A stretch of 64,000 nucleotides of DNA from the IMG/VR virus record IMGVR_UViG_3300047564_004575, positions 1 through 64,000 of that record. The stretch is one strand, 5' to 3'. Position 1 is the first letter of the stretch; every line of letters begins with the position of its first letter. This DNA comes from a virus. Positions 16,373-61,400 of this stretch are shown one piece after another. Position numbers and translations under genes: made by a program. Below the pieces are notes generated by a model. That model saw only the letters and a program-made list of their open reading frames with translations, had not been told where the DNA came from and made no database searches.

Positions 16373-16513
16373 TCAGCGTTAGTTTAATTGGTCAAAATGT
16401 AGCTATGGTATGCTACTAATCAGTTAAATAGTTTTTGTAAGCTAGCTACAAATAGATTTAATTGGTTAATCTCAACCCGGGATGGAGTATAGGTTCGAAT
16501 CCTATACGCTGAT
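16373..16513 (+). ncRNA. tRNA-like element / candidate attP
   Basis: The ends form a tRNA framework: acceptor TCAGCGT / ACGCTGA (7 bp, perfect), TA, a D-arm GTTT-AATTGGTCA-AAAT, and a T-arm ATAGG-TTCGAAT-CCTAT. In place of an anticodon arm there are about 90 nt with three small hairpins: GTAGC/GCTAC, TTTGTA/TACAAA and AGATT/AATCT. TTTAATTGGT occurs twice. It could be an attP that carries the 3' part of a host tRNA, or a tRNA-like non-coding RNA. No usable anticodon was found, so it is not called a tRNA. Confidence 0.45.
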
Positions 16514-26881: not shown

Positions 26882-27258
26882 AACGCATTAAACACCATCA
26901 ACAGTTAAGGGAACGGATTGTAAAGGGCATGGACTCTGTCAGTGATGCCTATCAATCCGCCATGCTACAAACTATCTCCGAACCCTATCAATGGCCCGAT
27001 GGGTTTGGCGTTACTCACCGTCGCAATGGGGAAGTAGTCGTCGGCTCTAACCGTAATATCGTGGACTTGGGTAATCTTAAAAACTCCCAAACTATGTTTC
27101 GCCAGGGATTAAAAACTACCTATGAATGGTCTGGCATGGGTGAAACACCGCCAGTTATTGTCCACGAGGGAGCTACACTAGCTAACGGAACTCAAATACC
27201 ACCCCGACGCTGGACTGAGGTGGCAGTTGATAAAGTAGATTGGCAGGGATTGTTTTAG
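26878..27258 (+). CDS. Head-tail connector / tail completion protein (gp10-like)
   Basis: 126 residues. The end NIVDLGNLKNSQTMFRQGL...YEWSGMGETPPVIVHEGATLANGTQIPPRRWTEVAVD matches the HK97-gp10/virion-morphogenesis pattern (RDIVDTG.L..S......W....YA..VHEG.....G....R.W). It helps join head and tail. Coupled to the portal. Confidence 0.65.
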   Translation: MKRIKHHQQLRERIVKGMDSVSDAYQSAMLQTISEPYQWPDGFGVTHRRNGEVVVGSNRNIVDLGNLKNSQTMFRQGLKTTYEWSGMGETPPVIVHEGATLANGTQIPPRRWTEVAVDKVDWQGLF

Positions 27259-27716
27259 CCTTGAATTTTAACGATCGCCGATTTACCAAAGTTTGGTTTG
27301 ATAATTTCTCGTTTTTCTCCAGCAAGTTGTTTCCGAACCGTAGAGACTGCAGCGACTTCCGCCCCTACTATATTCAGTTCTGAAATAAATCGCTTTTGAC
27401 CATCTTGTGACAAATTAGAACAGTCAATAGATGTCTGTAATCGTCGTAATTGCTTACGTTTTTTACGGTTAGCCGCTAGGTTTTGTTTCCGAACGTAAAA
27501 TACAGCTTCCTCATCGGTCAAGATAGAAATACCGCCACTATTGGTCTTACAAACTACTTCTAATCTTGATTCGATTTGACTAACCAATTGCATCACAGCA
27601 AACGAATATTCCTGAGAGTCTACTTTATGCCCTGTAATCTTTTCGAGGTAGTCAGGGTTTATATAATCACCTTTTTGTAAGGCATCAAAATCAAAGGGAA
27701 ACTTTTCAACGTTCAT
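27255..27716 (-). CDS. Basic hypothetical protein downstream of the pentamer array
   Basis: 153 residues with a basic segment near residues 75-90 (RKQNLAANRKKRKQLRRLQ) and a basic C-terminus (KREIIKPNFGKSAIVKIQG). No recognised domain; the composition could suit RNA or DNA binding. It is the last gene of the operon that holds the GTYNN array: its start (with GGAG 8 nt upstream) comes 31 nt after the last hairpin. It overlaps the connector gene at the 3' end by 4 nt. Confidence 0.5.
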   Translation of the reverse strand: MNVEKFPFDFDALQKGDYINPDYLEKITGHKVDSQEYSFAVMQLVSQIESRLEVVCKTNSGGISILTDEEAVFYVRKQNLAANRKKRKQLRRLQTSIDCSNLSQDGQKRFISELNIVGAEVAAVSTVRKQLAGEKREIIKPNFGKSAIVKIQG

Positions 27717-27747
27717 TACGAAACTCCAAAATAAATAAAAAGGGAGA

Positions 27748-27764
27748 GGGGCAATTAAGCCCCC
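27748..27764 (-). promoter_or_regulatory. Hairpin at 3' end of array
   Basis: GGGGC / GCCCC arms around AATTA, followed (minus strand) by TCTCCCTTTTT. It can act as a weak terminator or processing signal before the basic protein gene. Confidence 0.55.
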
Positions 27765-27766
27765 AT

Positions 27767-27836
27767 TAGACTAGACTTGGCGCGACCCAACGTGACTCGA
27801 CGCGACAGGACTTGACTCGACGGAACTGAACTTGAC
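27767..27836 (-). repeat. GTYNN pentamer tract A (14 units)
   Basis: 70 nt read on the minus strand as fourteen consecutive pentamers GTCAA GTTCA GTTCC GTCGA..., with G-T-Y fixed and the last two bases variable (one unit has GCC). Exact 5-nt register over the whole tract. It follows RNA unit 1. Confidence 0.85.
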
Positions 27837-27845
27837 ATGGGTTTT

Positions 27846-27888
27846 GCCGTCTTCAAGAATTGCACTTGATTAAACCACTAGGGACAGC
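27846..27888 (-). ncRNA. tRNA-like minihelix RNA, unit 1
   Basis: 43 nt. Stem 1 GCTGTC/GACGGC (6 bp), 5' bulge CCTAGTGGTTTAA, stem 2 TCAAG/CTTGA, loop TGCAATT, one unpaired A. The bulge resembles a tRNA D-loop (GTGG) and the arm a T-arm whose loop is TGCAATT instead of TTCRANN. No anticodon arm. Confidence 0.6.
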
Positions 27889-27892
27889 ATGA

Positions 27893-27910
27893 CTAGGGAG
27901 TTACCCCTAG
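27893..27910 (-). promoter_or_regulatory. Hairpin before unit 1
   Basis: CTAGGG / CCCTAG-type stem around a short AT-rich loop, followed by GTC. The same element stands before the tRNA-Cys and before unit 3, which suggests a processing or spacing role. Confidence 0.55.
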
Positions 27911-27914
27911 TAAT

Positions 27915-27984
27915 TAGACTAGACTTGACAAAACTTGACTTGACATGACATGACCGAACTCGACATGACCCAACTTGACCAAAC
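27915..27984 (-). repeat. GTYNN pentamer tract B (14 units)
   Basis: 70 nt of GTTTG GTCAA GTTGG GTCAT..., ending GTCTA GTCTA before the hairpin. Same rule as the other tracts. Confidence 0.85.
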
Positions 27985-27995
27985 ATGATTGTTTT

Positions 27996-28037
27996 GCCCT
28001 CCGATGGAATTGCACCACCGTTAACACTAGAGAAAGC
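27996..28037 (-). ncRNA. tRNA-like minihelix RNA, unit 2
   Basis: 42 nt. Stem 1 GCTTTC/GAGGGC, bulge TCTAGTGTTAAC, stem 2 GGTGG/CCATC, loop TGCAATT. Both stems differ in sequence from unit 1 but pair again, so the structure and not the sequence is conserved. Confidence 0.6.
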
Positions 28038-28043
28038 ATGGGA

Positions 28044-28057
28044 GGGGCATAAGCCCC
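28044..28057 (-). promoter_or_regulatory. Hairpin before unit 2
   Basis: GGGGC / GCCCC with a 4-nt loop, a variant of the CTAGGG hairpin at the same position relative to the RNA unit. Confidence 0.5.
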
Positions 28058-28124
28058 AAGACCTAACTAAGCTTGACTAAGCGTGACCAGTCTAAACATG
28101 GCGAACCCCGTCGAGACTCGTGAC
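28058..28124 (-). repeat. Degenerate pentamer tract C2
   Basis: 67 nt with a looser version of the pattern (GTCAC, GACGG, GCCAT, GCTTA, GTCAA...). About 13 units, one with two extra bases. Probably decaying or diverged. Confidence 0.6.
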
Positions 28125-28125
28125 G

Positions 28126-28135
28126 CTATCTTAAT
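28126..28135 (-). promoter_or_regulatory. Internal promoter motif in the array
   Basis: ATTAAGATAG on the minus strand, identical to the -10-like motif before dcd and the ParB-like gene. It could start a transcript with units 2 and 1 and the basic protein. Confidence 0.4.
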
Positions 28136-28148
28136 TAGGAGAAAAACA

Positions 28149-28204
28149 TAGACTAGACCCGACTAAACGTGGCTTGACTTGGCTGGACTGAACAAAAACG
28201 CGAC
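28149..28204 (-). repeat. GTYNN pentamer tract C1 (11 units)
   Basis: 56 nt; one unit has an extra T, the others follow GTYNN (two have GCC). It follows the tRNA-Cys. Confidence 0.75.
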
Positions 28205-28213
28205 TAGAAAGTT

Positions 28214-28287
28214 TGGAAGCGATACTGGGAATCGAACCCAGGATAGAGATTTTGCAGATCCCTGCCTTACCACTTGGCTATATCGCT
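28214..28287 (-). tRNA. tRNA-Cys (GCA), CCA encoded
   Basis: Acceptor AGCGATA/TATCGCT, D-arm GCC..GGC with AAGTGGTAA, anticodon arm GGGAT-CTGCAAA-ATCTC (anticodon GCA), T-arm CTGGG-TTCGATT-CCCAG, discriminator U and encoded CCA. U73 is a known identity element of tRNA-Cys. Length 74 nt with CCA. It sits inside the pentamer array. Confidence 0.95.
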
Positions 28288-28294
28288 TTGGAGA

Positions 28295-28312
28295 CTAGGG
28301 AATTACCCCTAG
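28295..28312 (-). promoter_or_regulatory. Hairpin before tRNA-Cys
   Basis: CTAGGGG / CCCTAG-type stem, 7 nt from the tRNA start, matching those before units 1 and 3. Confidence 0.55.
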
Positions 28313-28316
28313 TAAT

Positions 28317-28416
28317 TAGACTAGACATGACCAGACGCGACTTGACGAGACGCAACCAAACAAAACGCAACCGAACATAACCGAACGCGACAAGACGCGA
28401 CTAAACCTAACACAAC
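28317..28416 (-). repeat. GTYNN pentamer tract D (20 units)
   Basis: 100 nt with twenty uninterrupted GTY-NN units, the longest and cleanest tract. It joins RNA unit 3 to the tRNA-Cys leader hairpin. Confidence 0.9.
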
Positions 28417-28428
28417 TCGATTGTTTTT

Positions 28429-28471
28429 GCCCCTTGCCAGAATTGCACTGGCTTAAACCACTAGGAGAGGC
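28429..28471 (-). ncRNA. tRNA-like minihelix RNA, unit 3
   Basis: 43 nt. Stem 1 GCCTCT/AGGGGC, bulge CCTAGTGGTTTAA (same as unit 1), stem 2 GCCAG/CTGGC, loop TGCAATT, one unpaired A. Third member with compensatory changes in both stems. Confidence 0.6.
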
Positions 28472-28475
28472 GTGA

Positions 28476-28495
28476 CTAGGGGAATTAACCCCTAG
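28476..28495 (-). promoter_or_regulatory. Hairpin before unit 3
   Basis: CTAGGGG / CCCCTAG perfect stem around TTAATT, 5 nt from unit 3. Confidence 0.6.
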
Positions 28496-28499
28496 TAAT

Positions 28500-28559
28500 T
28501 AGACTTGACGCGACGCGACCTGGCAAAACATAACCCGACACGGCGGAACCAAACAAAAC
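28500..28559 (-). repeat. GTYNN pentamer tract E (12 units)
   Basis: 60 nt directly after the stop region of the 28577 gene; twelve units, two of them GCC-type. It is the 5' start of the array in transcription order. Confidence 0.85.
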
Positions 28560-28576
28560 TCAGCAAGAAAATCTGT

Positions 28577-29197
28577 TTAGAGTTCGACTTTAAAGCGACC
28601 AAACTCAGGACGGCGATCGCATAGTCCGATGATTTTGCCGCTTAGATGCAAGATATCAGCAATGTCAGCTTGGTTTACAACATCTGGCATATAGTCAACA
28701 ACGATTTCCGCTTCCCATGACCGGAAAATAGGACGGGTACGCATAATAGCATTCTTCATCACACGCTCAGCCCGAACGTCAACATAGTTGGCATCCGCCC
28801 ATAACTCGTTAGTTCCTTTGTTAGTCCCAATGTCAAGACGGGCATCTTCACTAATCACAATCCCAGCTTTAAACGTCGTCCCAAGCTTCTTCTTTTTAGC
28901 ACCTGACAAAAGCATCCCTTTAATAACCGTAGCAGGTAAGCATGGCTTGCTATTGTCGGTAAAAGCAATGTCTGCCCCGTCAACGTCTAGATTGTGTTGA
29001 CCTTCCAGATAAAGACCGGCATACCATTCTAATTTGCTGATAACGTCGAGGTCATCTTCAACCTTTTTGCGCTTGCCGGTGTATTGCTTAATCAGTTGCG
29101 TGATGCCATTGCGAGGATTGACCAGAATATTGGCATTGTGCATTAACAGGGGAGTGTGTCCTATTAACTTTGCTTGCAGTGTTTTAAAACCGTCCAT
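28577..29197 (-). CDS. Phage protein with weak RAMP-like features, first gene of array operon
   Basis: 206 residues. Starts LQAKLIGHTPLLMHNANI..., a start pattern I associate with a phage family, and ends GLCDRRPEFGRFKVEL, a glycine/arginine-rich end that recalls the RAMP superfamily to which Cas7 belongs. This link is weak. If true it would be an RNA- or DNA-binding ferredoxin-like protein. It has a strong promoter (TTGACA, 17 nt, TAATAT) and a repeat copy upstream, and the pentamer array starts 18 nt after its stop. Confidence 0.5.
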   Translation of the reverse strand: MDGFKTLQAKLIGHTPLLMHNANILVNPRNGITQLIKQYTGKRKKVEDDLDVISKLEWYAGLYLEGQHNLDVDGADIAFTDNSKPCLPATVIKGMLLSGAKKKKLGTTFKAGIVISEDARLDIGTNKGTNELWADANYVDVRAERVMKNAIMRTRPIFRSWEAEIVVDYMPDVVNQADIADILHLSGKIIGLCDRRPEFGRFKVEL

Positions 29198-29226: not shown

Positions 29227-29255
29227 ATATTACCTGGCACACTGTTATTTGTCAA
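29227..29255 (-). promoter_or_regulatory. Promoter of array operon
   Basis: TTGACA and TAATAT with a 17-nt spacer on the minus strand, about 30 nt from the start codon at 29197. Contains GTGTGCCAGG, a partial match to the shared promoter core. Confidence 0.7.
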
Positions 29256-58422: not shown

Positions 58423-61400
58423 TAGGTTAACGGCAAAGTCGCCCCCAGTGTAAATTGTAATTTGTTGGGAGTAGACACCGCGCTAATAACCAACGTCACA
58501 TCTTGCCCCACCGATGCAACACTAGCCCCTGATGCCGTTGGATTTTGAGGGGTTGAATTAACATTTAGGTTTGTTAATCCTGTCACGTTTACGCCGTTAA
58601 TTTGGATGGATAGAGTGCAAGTGCCTGACGTTGTTTTTAACCCCCTTAATTCGTTGATTGTGGTGGTAGTTGTTGCGGTGAAAAGATAAATTGTGCTAAC
58701 CGTTGGAGTTGTTGAATTGTAAGATCCAAAAGTTTTAACGGTGGTGGGCTGTGTTGGTATGGTGGGGAATGTTTGTAAACTCCCATCCCCCCGCAAATAC
58801 TGGCTAGTTGTGCCTGTGGGGTTATTAAATTTACTATTTAATGCCGTTTGCAAATCAGTTTGATCAGCCAACGTCCCCCCAATATCTCCCCAGTCAACCG
58901 CTGAAGTGATAATCACAAAATCAGTTAACGATTGCCCTGTGCCGGTGGGGTTGGTAACGGTGACTTTTCCTGTTGTAGTTCCACTACCAATCGCCCCATT
59001 GATAACCCCATCAGAAACGACAGTAAAACTATCGACAGAAATGCCGTTAATTGCTGCGGTGGTAGCTGACGTAAAACCTGAACCATAAATCGTAATTTCA
59101 CGACCTATTCCCCCTTGTGTTGGGCTAAACCCCAACACAGTAGGAACGGGATTGCTAAGTATAGGAGATAAAACATCAGTAAAAACATAGCCCCGCCCAT
59201 ACTCCGTTGATAATTGGTATAAGTCGATATTAAGAGTTGACTGAGTAACACCAAAATCTATTACCTGTTCACTAGCTAAGTACTTAACTGTCGCCTCACT
59301 ACTAGACAATGTTCTAACAATATCAACGCCATCATAAATATCAATATCAAATGATTGGGGTGTTAACGATCCCGCCCCGGTATTATTAGCAGTCCAGTTA
59401 ATGGTTATATTGCCCGCGCTATCTTTGGTTGACGTTACATTGCTAACGGTATAGGGCTTAAAGTAAATGCCCTCTACAACATGAGAAACTACTGTAGTCA
59501 CCGACGCTAAATCAAGATTAGATGGCACTACTTTTAAATCAATAGTCTGTCCTACCGTATCGGCATTGATGGGCAATAACAATAATTCTCCAATCCCACC
59601 GTTAGCTAAATAAACTGATTCGCCATCGCTATGACTAACGGGAATTGTACCATTAACGCCCCTTTGTAAATAACTTAATTCGTAAGTATTGCCACTGACT
59701 AAATTGACATCTCTGGCGACTATTTGTTCCGAACCAATCAACAGGATAATTTCTTTATTGTCAAACTCATTCTGGGTTAATTGGTCTAGTGTCCCCTTGC
59801 TCAATACCACAGTGGCAGTATTAGTTATATCTAGTCCCGTAGCTAACGGTAAAGTACCCGATAAACTACCCTGAGTAGTGGGATTGATAACGGACACTAC
59901 AGGCTCATAATTCCCGCCATTAATACGAGCATAAATTACATTCTGTCCGAACCTATCGCCATCGCCACTAATAGCCGCATAAATGCAAGAAACATCGCCT
60001 ACACTAATCCGATTAGTCTCTACAACTTCAATGGTGACATTGCCATAATTAGGCTGTTCTGATTCGGGGTTATAGGTGTTGACGGTATAGTCAGGCTCTG
60101 CCAAGTAAATAATAGTTAAATCATCGCCTGTAGTGATGCTAGAACCACCGATAATCGTTATCTGTCCTGTTGATAGGTTAACGGTATAATCAACGCCTTG
60201 CACGTAGGTTGTAGCCCCGTCTGCACTTGTTACCGTGGGGGGGTTGATGATGTTAGGGGTTAACTGAATAACCCCGCCATTGTAGGCAACATTGGTCTGG
60301 CTGCTTACCCCTAATTGAGCAGTAAATACTTGTCCGTTAAACTCATAAACCTCAACCTCAGCGACTAGATTGCTGCCTACAACAATCGACGCGATTTGAA
60401 AGGGTATCGCACTTGTTCCCTCACTAAGAGGAAAACTATATCTAAAAGCTTCTGTTAATGTGACCGCATCTTCTGGCAATAAATTAATCGTGAATCGTCT
60501 AGCCTGTGCCCATGCAAATTCTAAATATTTCCACACCCACCATTTAGCTTCATCTGGCATTAAAAACAATGCTGAGCTAATACTCTTAGGATTGTAATGT
60601 TTTGCTAACGGATAAATTTTAGTCTCGTTATCACTGTTGAAATCATCACTCAGGTTAGTAAATGACAATGTAACTGACGATGGTAGTTCAGACTCATCAG
60701 GCATGATTTCAGAGTAAGGATCGCCCGGTTCACTCCCATATTCAACAGCTCCTAAATCGCCCCAACTGCCAGCGGTGACAGTTTGCACTTCACCTGGCCC
60801 ATTGAAAACAATTGCCCCGTCATCGTCTAAATAAGTCAGCAAGAAATGACGTTGAACTAACTCATTGATAAAGTCTGCTGCTGTTCCCCCATCCTGTTTA
60901 AAGATGGCATTTATCCGAGGGTACTGGTCTACGATATTGTCACATTTAATATCAACCCCACGGACTAATCCAACAGTTTCAGCGACTTCATAAATGACCT
61001 GATCAATCCGGTTACAGATGCCACTTTCCCGCTTAACAATAACGTCAATATTTGATGGTAATTCCCCGCCAAATTCGTCTAAGGGAAGGTCGGTTACAAC
61101 GGCATAAACGAGATGTCTAAAGTTGCGATCGCCGTTTTGATTGCCTTCGTAATTTTGAATAGTCGGGTCTATATTTTGGTTACTTGCTCCGGTATAGATT
61201 TTGATGTAATTCTCTAATTTGTAATCATTATCAGCGATGGTTCCATCTAACTGACCATCACGATTAAACCAAATCTTATCGTTAAACTTAATCTGTCTAA
61301 CATCTATTTCCGCCGCCCCATCACAGATAGCAAAGGCAAAAGTCCCAAAATATTTATAGGTTGTTGTTTGATTGGTGGTTGTTGAACTTTTAGCCCCAAT

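What the first reader, a model, noticed from the sequence alone, without database searches (positions are those of the whole stretch)
27747..28560. Non-coding array of GTYNN pentamers between RNA units
Read on the minus strand, about 84 pentamers follow G-T-Y-N-N. Four tracts (14, 14, 20 and 12 units) keep exact 5-nt register over 60-100 nt; two more are looser. G, T and the pyrimidine are kept while the last two bases vary. The tracts fill every space between four small RNAs. A 5-nt period is not a codon period and frames are broken by stops, so a coding role is unlikely. Possible roles: RNA bound by a ring or filament protein with one subunit per 5 nt (compare TRAP, which binds NAG triplets spaced by about 5 nt), a DNA site with half-turn periodicity (packaging or partition), or a spacer kept unstructured. 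I know of no description of such an array.
Basis: seen in the sequence. Interest (0 to 1): 0.93.

Follow-up and report, generated by a model that had tools for sequence, protein, structure and literature searches.

The report
Phage VIPR guide-RNA array, tRNA-like separators
The odd five-letter repeat is a set of guide RNAs of a VIPR system, a recently described viral relative of CRISPR that phages use against rival phages; this probable cyanophage copy uses GTY instead of GGY as its fixed letters and separates its guides with shrunken tRNA-like RNAs, which as far as could be checked has not been described.

Summary
In detail: 84 GTY triplets, 56 pairs exactly 5 nt apart (shuffles 4.8 +/- 2.2, maximum 15 in 2000), longest run 20 (shuffles at most 4). 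But the system is known. The gene just upstream (28577-29197, -) is homologous to the solved SUSP1 Vipr protein (PDB 36pp; profile E 9e-56) and its model has the Cas7/Csm3 RAMP fold; the gene downstream (27255-27716, -) is the conserved accessory gene (vap). The tracts are vrRNAs of a VIPR system (PMC13142463, bioRxiv 2026): the fixed triplet is scaffold, the variable NN pairs read DNA with a one-base skip. Among IMG/VR loci found by the DNA pattern alone, 31 of 38 with diverse arrays encode Vipr or Vap, against 0 of 60 with low-diversity runs. New here: a GTY scaffold inside a Vipr clade that mostly uses GGY; and three 42-43-nt tRNA-like elements (acceptor stem, D-loop-like linker, T arm; no anticodon arm) plus a tRNA-Cys between the vrRNAs. 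The same element separates arrays in a mycobacteriophage, a Gordonia phage, a related phage and a metagenomic phage, and was found in no other sequence tested. RNase P/RNase Z processing is inferred. No target was found.

The parts
29227..29255 (-). promoter-like site upstream of vipr (TTGACA-17-TAATAT, 10 of 12)
   Evidence: consensus scan only; the number found in the region is that expected by chance
28577..29197 (-). vipr gene, 206 aa, RAMP-fold protein (phrog_4652)
   Evidence: searches (phrog_4652, 5.7e-39; PDB 36pp SUSP1 Vipr, 5.3e-16), model, Csm3/Cas7 fold
28500..28564 (-). vrRNA 1 repeats (13 G-T/C-Y-NN units, first one in the leader)
28472..28499 (-). vrRNA 1 tail: ATTA + hairpin CTAGGGG-TTAATT-CCCCTAG
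   Evidence: fold
28425..28471 (-). tRNA-like element 1
28317..28416 (-). vrRNA 2 repeats (20 exact GTYNN units)
28290..28316 (-). vrRNA 2 tail hairpin
   Evidence: fold
28214..28287 (-). tRNA-Cys (GCA), with encoded CCA
   Evidence: ARAGORN; Rfam 65 bits; sequence
28149..28193 (-). vrRNA 3 repeats (9 units, irregular 5' part)
28058..28117 (-). vrRNA 4 repeats (10 of 12 units, irregular)
27992..28037 (-). tRNA-like element 2
27915..27984 (-). vrRNA 5 repeats (14 exact units)
27889..27914 (-). vrRNA 5 tail hairpin
   Evidence: fold
27842..27888 (-). tRNA-like element 3
27767..27836 (-). vrRNA 6 repeats (14 units, 11 exact in a row)
27747..27764 (-). vrRNA 6 tail hairpin followed by a T run (terminator-like)
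   Evidence: fold
27255..27716 (-). vap gene, 153 aa, winged-helix-like N-terminal part plus helical hairpin
   Evidence: (family B, profile E 8.8e-32), model; no confident PDB match

Best explanation
This is a VIPR (Viral Interference Programmable Repeat) locus of a probable cyanophage. The pentamer tracts are six guide RNAs (vrRNAs). In each unit the fixed G-T/C-Y triplet is scaffold held by a subunit of the RAMP-fold Vipr protein, and the free NN dinucleotide is guide sequence; by the published rule successive NNs pair with DNA as NNx-NNx-NNx, the skipped base tending to fall on codon wobble positions. The complex would bind and silence genes of rival phages or other mobile elements, helped by the Vap protein. 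Between the guides lie three miniature tRNA-like elements (acceptor stem, D-loop-like linker, T arm) and one real tRNA-Cys; I infer that host RNase P (5') and RNase Z or exonucleases (3') recognise them and cut the transcript into single vrRNAs, each ending in a hairpin tail. Shown here: anatomy, homology, fold, association, covariation. Taken from the paper: RNA binding, skip rule, silencing. Inferred: that GTY works like GGY, the processing route (about 0.6), and the anti-phage role in this phage.
For: Vipr homology to PDB 36pp and RAMP fold. Association of the array with Vipr/Vap found from DNA pattern alone: 31 of 38 diverse-array loci, 0 of 60 low-diversity loci, 0 of 17 controls. GGY arrays beside the same gene in eight other phage regions, clear in most. 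Scaffold kept while NN turns over between near-identical phages. NN composition over 1953 units fits codon positions 1-2 (+49.7 nats) and not 2-3 or 3-1 (-114.9, -217.9). tRNA-like elements: covariation; 14 copies in five VIPR loci, none in 937 kb of other sequence or in shuffles. RNase P cleaves acceptor/T-stem minihelices in vitro (PMC11221534). System described in PMC13142463.
Against: No target found, though cyanobacterial genomes could not be searched. The window's own 64 units do not by themselves show the codon signature. Published proof is for GGY, not GTY. vr3 and vr4 are irregular. Most VIPR loci examined lack tRNA-like elements, so they are not essential to VIPR in general. In L016 the elements lie on the strand opposite to the GTT reading of the arrays. 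The elements encode no CCA.
Confidence: 0.92

Rival explanations
1. The pentamers are bound by a protein ring or filament as a decoy, sponge or packaging RNA (TRAP-like or pRNA-like), and the NN letters carry no information.
For: The 5-nt register and free NN fit any one-subunit-per-5-nt binder; in the window and in L030 the locus lies near terminase genes.
Against: The neighbour is Vipr, whose relatives use NN as guide (PMC13142463). NN composition carries a codon-position signature. Other phages have the locus far from packaging genes.
Confidence: 0.04
2. A DNA site with half-turn periodicity for packaging, partition or replication.
For: Direct repeats of 5 bp could phase protein contacts at half-turns of DNA.
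Against: Tracts end in RNA-type hairpins and alternate with a tRNA and covarying tRNA-like RNAs on the same strand; SUSP1 vrRNAs are transcribed and co-purify with Vipr (PMC13142463).
Confidence: 0.02
3. A neutral or slippage-born degenerate tandem repeat.
For: Whole units are gained and lost between close relatives.
Against: Random decay would hit all five positions alike; here G, T and Y hold 0.97-1.91 bits and NN 0.07-0.10; low-diversity runs, the expected slippage products, are never next to Vipr (0 of 60).
Confidence: 0.01
4. A genuine VIPR locus, but the tRNA-like elements are not processing sites: they are decayed tRNA genes carried along, or structural caps of the vrRNA tails.
For: A real tRNA-Cys sits in one gap; the elements lack CCA; most VIPR arrays do without them.
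Against: Paired positions covary, so structure is kept; the same armless form, with exact T loops, recurs in array gaps of several distant phages and nowhere else tested, which decay does not predict; hammerhead-interspersed arrays (PMC13142463) show that cutters between vrRNAs are an established solution.
Confidence: 0.35
5. A VIPR locus in decay, no longer active in this phage.
For: Two irregular tracts, some GCY units, no target found.
Against: vipr and vap are intact, three tracts are perfect over 55-100 nt, and the relative L138 keeps a different set of tracts.
Confidence: 0.08

Closest known systems
VIPR type II systems of Escherichia phage SUSP1 and a Pseudomonas fulva prophage (PMC13142463; PDB 36pp)
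   Same: Homologous Vipr protein, accessory gene, phage location, pentamer guides with a fixed triplet and free NN, 3' tail with hairpin, several guides around the genes
   Different: GTY (partly GCY) instead of GGY; tracts of up to 20 units; tRNA-Cys and tRNA-like elements between the guides; probable cyanobacterial host
Hammerhead-interspersed VIPR arrays (PMC13142463, fig. S19 as cited in its text)
   Same: An RNA element between successive vrRNAs that could free them
   Different: Here the element is tRNA-like and would need host enzymes instead of cutting itself
Class 1 CRISPR-Cas, Cas7/Csm3 backbone proteins
   Same: RAMP fold (VIA Z 10-12); guide RNA coated by repeated subunits
   Different: No Cas operon, no repeat-spacer array; guide letters are spread over pentamers
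tRNA (Rfam RF00005) and RNase P minihelix substrates such as pATSer (PMC11221534)
   Same: Stacked acceptor-like and T stems, 7-nt T-type loop, G-C closing pair
   Different: No anticodon arm, D stem or CCA; natural and repeated in an array
TRAP-binding RNA
   Same: Triplets repeated about every 5 nt and bound by repeated subunits
   Different: Unrelated protein and triplet; TRAP spacers are not guides

Membership tests
VIPR | Vipr protein: RAMP homologue with glycine-rich loop | tested here: met
   PDB 36pp at 5.3e-16 alone and 8.8e-56 by profile; Csm3/Cas7 fold; C-terminal G-x-x-x-G-x-x-x-x-R-x-x-x-G invariant
VIPR | vap accessory gene beside vipr | tested here: met
   Family B beside vipr in the window, in the SUSP1-like phage wV8 and in about 20 further loci; L138
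VIPR | vrRNA of tandem pentamers, GGY/NN or a related consensus, 9-16 repeats | tested here: met
   GTY/NN, about 8-20 units; counted as a related consensus, not GGY itself
VIPR | Structured invariable 3' tail after the repeats (pseudoknot in the SUSP1 clade) | tested here: inconclusive
   Constant GTCTA(GTCTA) and hairpin tails are present in most tracts; a pseudoknot was not tested
VIPR | vrRNAs expressed and bound by Vipr | not testable with these tools
   Needs RNA sequencing and pull-down
VIPR | 1-nt skip recognition of double-stranded DNA | tested here: inconclusive
   Pooled NN fit codon positions 1-2 over 1953 units; no direct target; window alone uninformative
VIPR | Targets in competing mobile elements | tested here: inconclusive
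VIPR type II clade | Vipr groups with the SUSP1-like protein | tested here: met
   Clade with support 95 that contains wV8; SUSP1 itself was not in the tree
CRISPR-Cas class 1 | Identical repeats alternating with spacers, cas operon | tested here: not met
   Only a pentamer scaffold; ORFs around the locus show no cas operon, and no PADLOC match to the Vipr family beyond one weak unrelated hit
tRNA | Acceptor and T arms with T loop | tested here: met
   6-7 of 7 and 5 of 5 pairs, 7-nt T-type loop
tRNA | D stem and anticodon arm | tested here: not met
   Only a 11-13-nt linker in their place; ARAGORN and Rfam do not call the elements
TRAP-bound RNA | TRAP protein and (G/U)AG triplets | tested here: not met
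   Triplet is GTY; the protein beside the array has the RAMP fold

The most novel reading that the evidence does not exclude
A family of natural armless mini-tRNAs serves as maturation signals in phage guide-RNA arrays: host RNase P and RNase Z cut at them and so release VIPR guides, as hammerhead ribozymes may do in other VIPR arrays; and the scaffold letter has moved between GGY and GTY several times, with a residue in the Vipr glycine-rich loop (W/Y in GGY users, R/S/L in GTY users of the same clade) as the candidate specificity switch.
Probability: 0.5. Interest if true: 0.7.

Novelty: new variant of a known kind. Interest (0 to 1): 0.56.

Why it matters
VIPR was described in 2026, with experiments on GGY systems of SUSP1 and a Pseudomonas prophage. 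This locus extends it to a probable cyanophage, shows that the fixed letters of the code differ within one Vipr clade, and points to a maturation route through host tRNA enzymes. If right, GGY and GTY systems offer separate guide scaffolds, and multi-guide transcripts could be matured by host enzymes. The fast NN turnover between near-identical phages is a readable record of conflict between phages.

Tried and rejected
DNA searches of phages and plasmids with the whole array region matched only a stretch at the tRNA-Cys. A protein scan of IMG/VR with the window Vipr alone found no relative; relatives came from the array pattern, from INPHARED and from a terminase scan. The vrRNA tail pattern found nothing in viral or genome collections. 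Target searches: exact 10-unit patterns for vr2, vr5 and vr6 in IMG/VR gave 0; an 8-unit vr2 pattern gave 17 hits, at chance level in the remaining units; the window and all held loci gave only background. Rfam on 28 loci gave no hammerhead or tRNA at gathering scores. The Vap model had no confident PDB match. A second leader-like TTTCTTGCTG at 60837-60846 has no array beside it and looks like chance. A covariance model joining the window and L016 elements was given up because the alignment misplaced the acceptor; the free-form scan replaced it. The VIPR paper's supplement could not be opened, so figures S16-S20 were not checked for tRNA-like separators or GTY types.

Full report
OBSERVATION. 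Read on the minus strand, 27747-28560 holds 84 GTY triplets. Fifty-six pairs lie exactly 5 nt apart and 54 lie 10 nt apart; other lags from 3 to 12 give 0-4. In 2000 dinucleotide-preserving shuffles lag 5 gave 4.8 +/- 2.2 (maximum 15) and the longest run was at most 4, against 20 observed. Six tracts are present: exact runs of 20, 14 and 11 units, and three that become regular if GCY units are allowed. Information per phase is 1.91, 1.19, 0.97, 0.10 and 0.07 bits.

WHAT IS AROUND IT. In the direction of reading the locus runs: vipr (28577-29197), six pentamer tracts, vap (27255-27716), all on the minus strand. Four of the six tracts end in two constant GTCTA units (vr1 in one), and most are followed by a hairpin such as CTAGGGG-TTAATT-CCCCTAG. 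The tracts are separated by a tRNA-Cys and by three copies of a 42-43-nt element. The window belongs to a 72,660-bp virus record with a portal gene and a gene whose relatives are annotated as terminase large subunit. The motif GCGATCGC occurs 46 times in 64 kb; this is HIP1, known to be over-represented in many cyanobacteria, so the host is probably a cyanobacterium (own knowledge, not tested further).

WHICH PROTEIN GOES WITH IT. An IMG/VR scan with nine GTYNN units, a DNA pattern that knows nothing of genes, returned 119 loci. Of 60 loci whose runs have at most 5 distinct units, none encodes the protein found next to the window array; of 38 loci with 8 or more distinct units, 31 encode it or its partner; 17 control loci encode neither. 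Two of the other seven carry it elsewhere on the same contig. This protein is phrog_4652, of unknown function in PHROGs. It occurs in 128 phage records, among them Felixounavirus, Pseudomonas, Mycobacterium and Gordonia phages. The eight such regions examined carry 5-nt degenerate arrays beside it with GGY as the main fixed triplet; the signal is clear in most and weak in Medea1 and prophiBWHA-1.

IDENTITY. The profile of the family matches PDB 36pp, 'SUSP1 Vipr protein', at 8.8e-56, and the window protein alone does so at 5.3e-16. The AlphaFold2 model of the window protein (pLDDT 90.6, pTM 0.86) has Csm3/Cas7 proteins as its best solved matches (Foldseek E 1.4e-5; VIA Z 10-12 over about 120-165 residues). 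A literature search found the description: VIPR, PMC13142463 (bioRxiv, April 2026). There, Vipr binds vrRNAs of GGY/NN pentamers 'or a related consensus'; each NN pairs with DNA and one target base is skipped per unit; the complex represses genes, and natural targets lie in satellites and prophages. The window has the genetic parts of such a system. In a tree of 44 Vipr proteins the window protein and its 78%-identical relative in L138 fall into a supported clade (95) with wV8 (Felixounavirus, the SUSP1-like branch), LittleE, Trine and LESphi2, which use GGY; GTY occurs in three separate lineages of that clade.

HOW THE ARRAY EVOLVES. Two phages of about 95% identity (L030, L095) keep the ends and almost every GTT of their arrays, while many NN letters differ and whole units are gained or lost; L036 and L049 behave alike. 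That is expected if NN is guide sequence under fast selection and the triplet is scaffold. Pooled over 1953 units, NN doublets fit codon positions 1-2 of genes in the same records (+49.7 nats against a phase-free background; +57.5 for the mean of both strands) and not positions 2-3 (-114.9) or 3-1 (-217.9). This supports, for mostly GTY arrays and without experiments, a target step of 3 nt with the wobble base skipped. The window's own 64 units are too few to show it (-0.8).

THE SEPARATORS. The three window elements and one in L138 share a 7-position acceptor-like stem (6 or 7 pairs), a 5-bp stem closed by an invariant G-C, a 7-nt T-type loop (TGCAATT or TGTAATT) and a linker such as CTAGTGGTTTAA that resembles a D loop; anticodon arm and D stem are missing. 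Seven of 12 pairs show changes on both sides, 95.8% of cells are paired, and slid controls give 35-54%. A free-form scan for this architecture found 14 copies, all in VIPR loci: window 3, L138 1, mycobacteriophage LittleE 3, Gordonia phage MakoManhole 3, metagenomic phage L016 4; none in 937 kb of other held sequence and none in shuffles. LittleE, MakoManhole and L016 have the loops TTCGATT, TTCGAGT or TTCGACT, canonical for tRNA. The elements lie in or beside the gaps of the arrays. The records of two phages with closely related terminase but without vipr (L136, L139) lack the element, and the one with vipr (L138) has it. The main text of the VIPR paper mentions hammerhead-interspersed and staggered arrays and does not contain the word tRNA; its supplement could not be opened. 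RNase P recognises stacked acceptor and T stems and cleaves such minihelices in vitro (PMC11221534). I therefore propose that host RNase P and RNase Z cut the vrRNA precursor at these elements and at the tRNA-Cys. A supporting detail: in L138 three tracts that do not follow an element start with the leader TTTCTTGCTG, as does vr1 in the window, whereas tracts after an element lack it. The processing step is inferred.

WHAT IS NOT SHOWN. No target was found in IMG/VR for three guides tested as exact 10-unit patterns, none with an 8-unit vr2 pattern, none in the window or held loci. Cyanobacterial genomes could not be searched. Transcription, binding and silencing are untested here. vr3 and vr4 are irregular. 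That GTY works like GGY is inferred from homology.

VERDICT. The array is a VIPR guide-RNA array: a new variant (GTY scaffold, tRNA-like separators, probable cyanophage) of a kind published in 2026.

Noticed in passing
window 16373-16513 (+): Rfam tRNA match (40.1 bits) spread over 141 nt with about 70 extra nt around the anticodon region; ARAGORN does not call it. Possibly a tRNA with an insertion or two fused remnants.
   Followed up: partly
L016 1093-1778 (-): The tRNA-like elements lie on the strand on which the array reads AACNN, opposite to the GTT reading. In several loci of the same Vipr clade (L040, L065, L017, L011) the GTC reading is also antisense to vipr, so the RNA strand there may carry RAC-NN.
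   Followed up: partly
window Vipr residue 195 (codon within 28577-29197): Within the type II clade the residue before the RP of the glycine-rich loop is W or Y in seven GGY users and R, S or L in five GTY users; a few other columns separate them as well. Few independent lineages.
   Followed up: partly
L012, L043, L069, L047, L092: Diverse GTYNN arrays on records with no detectable Vipr: orphan arrays, incomplete records or unrecognised Vipr types.
   Followed up: partly
L030 and L095, L036 and L049: Near-identical phages whose arrays keep GTY but have largely replaced NN and gained or lost whole units: very fast guide turnover.
   Followed up: partly
L089 9984-10218 (+): HEARO RNA (RF02033, 108.6 bits) on the same contig as a VIPR locus.
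   Followed up: no
L132 (phage wV8) 3768-3825 and 5161-5218: The record annotates direct repeats DR_4 in the intergenic regions flanking its vipr and vap genes; they overlap the vrRNA regions and were never explained in the annotation.
   Followed up: no
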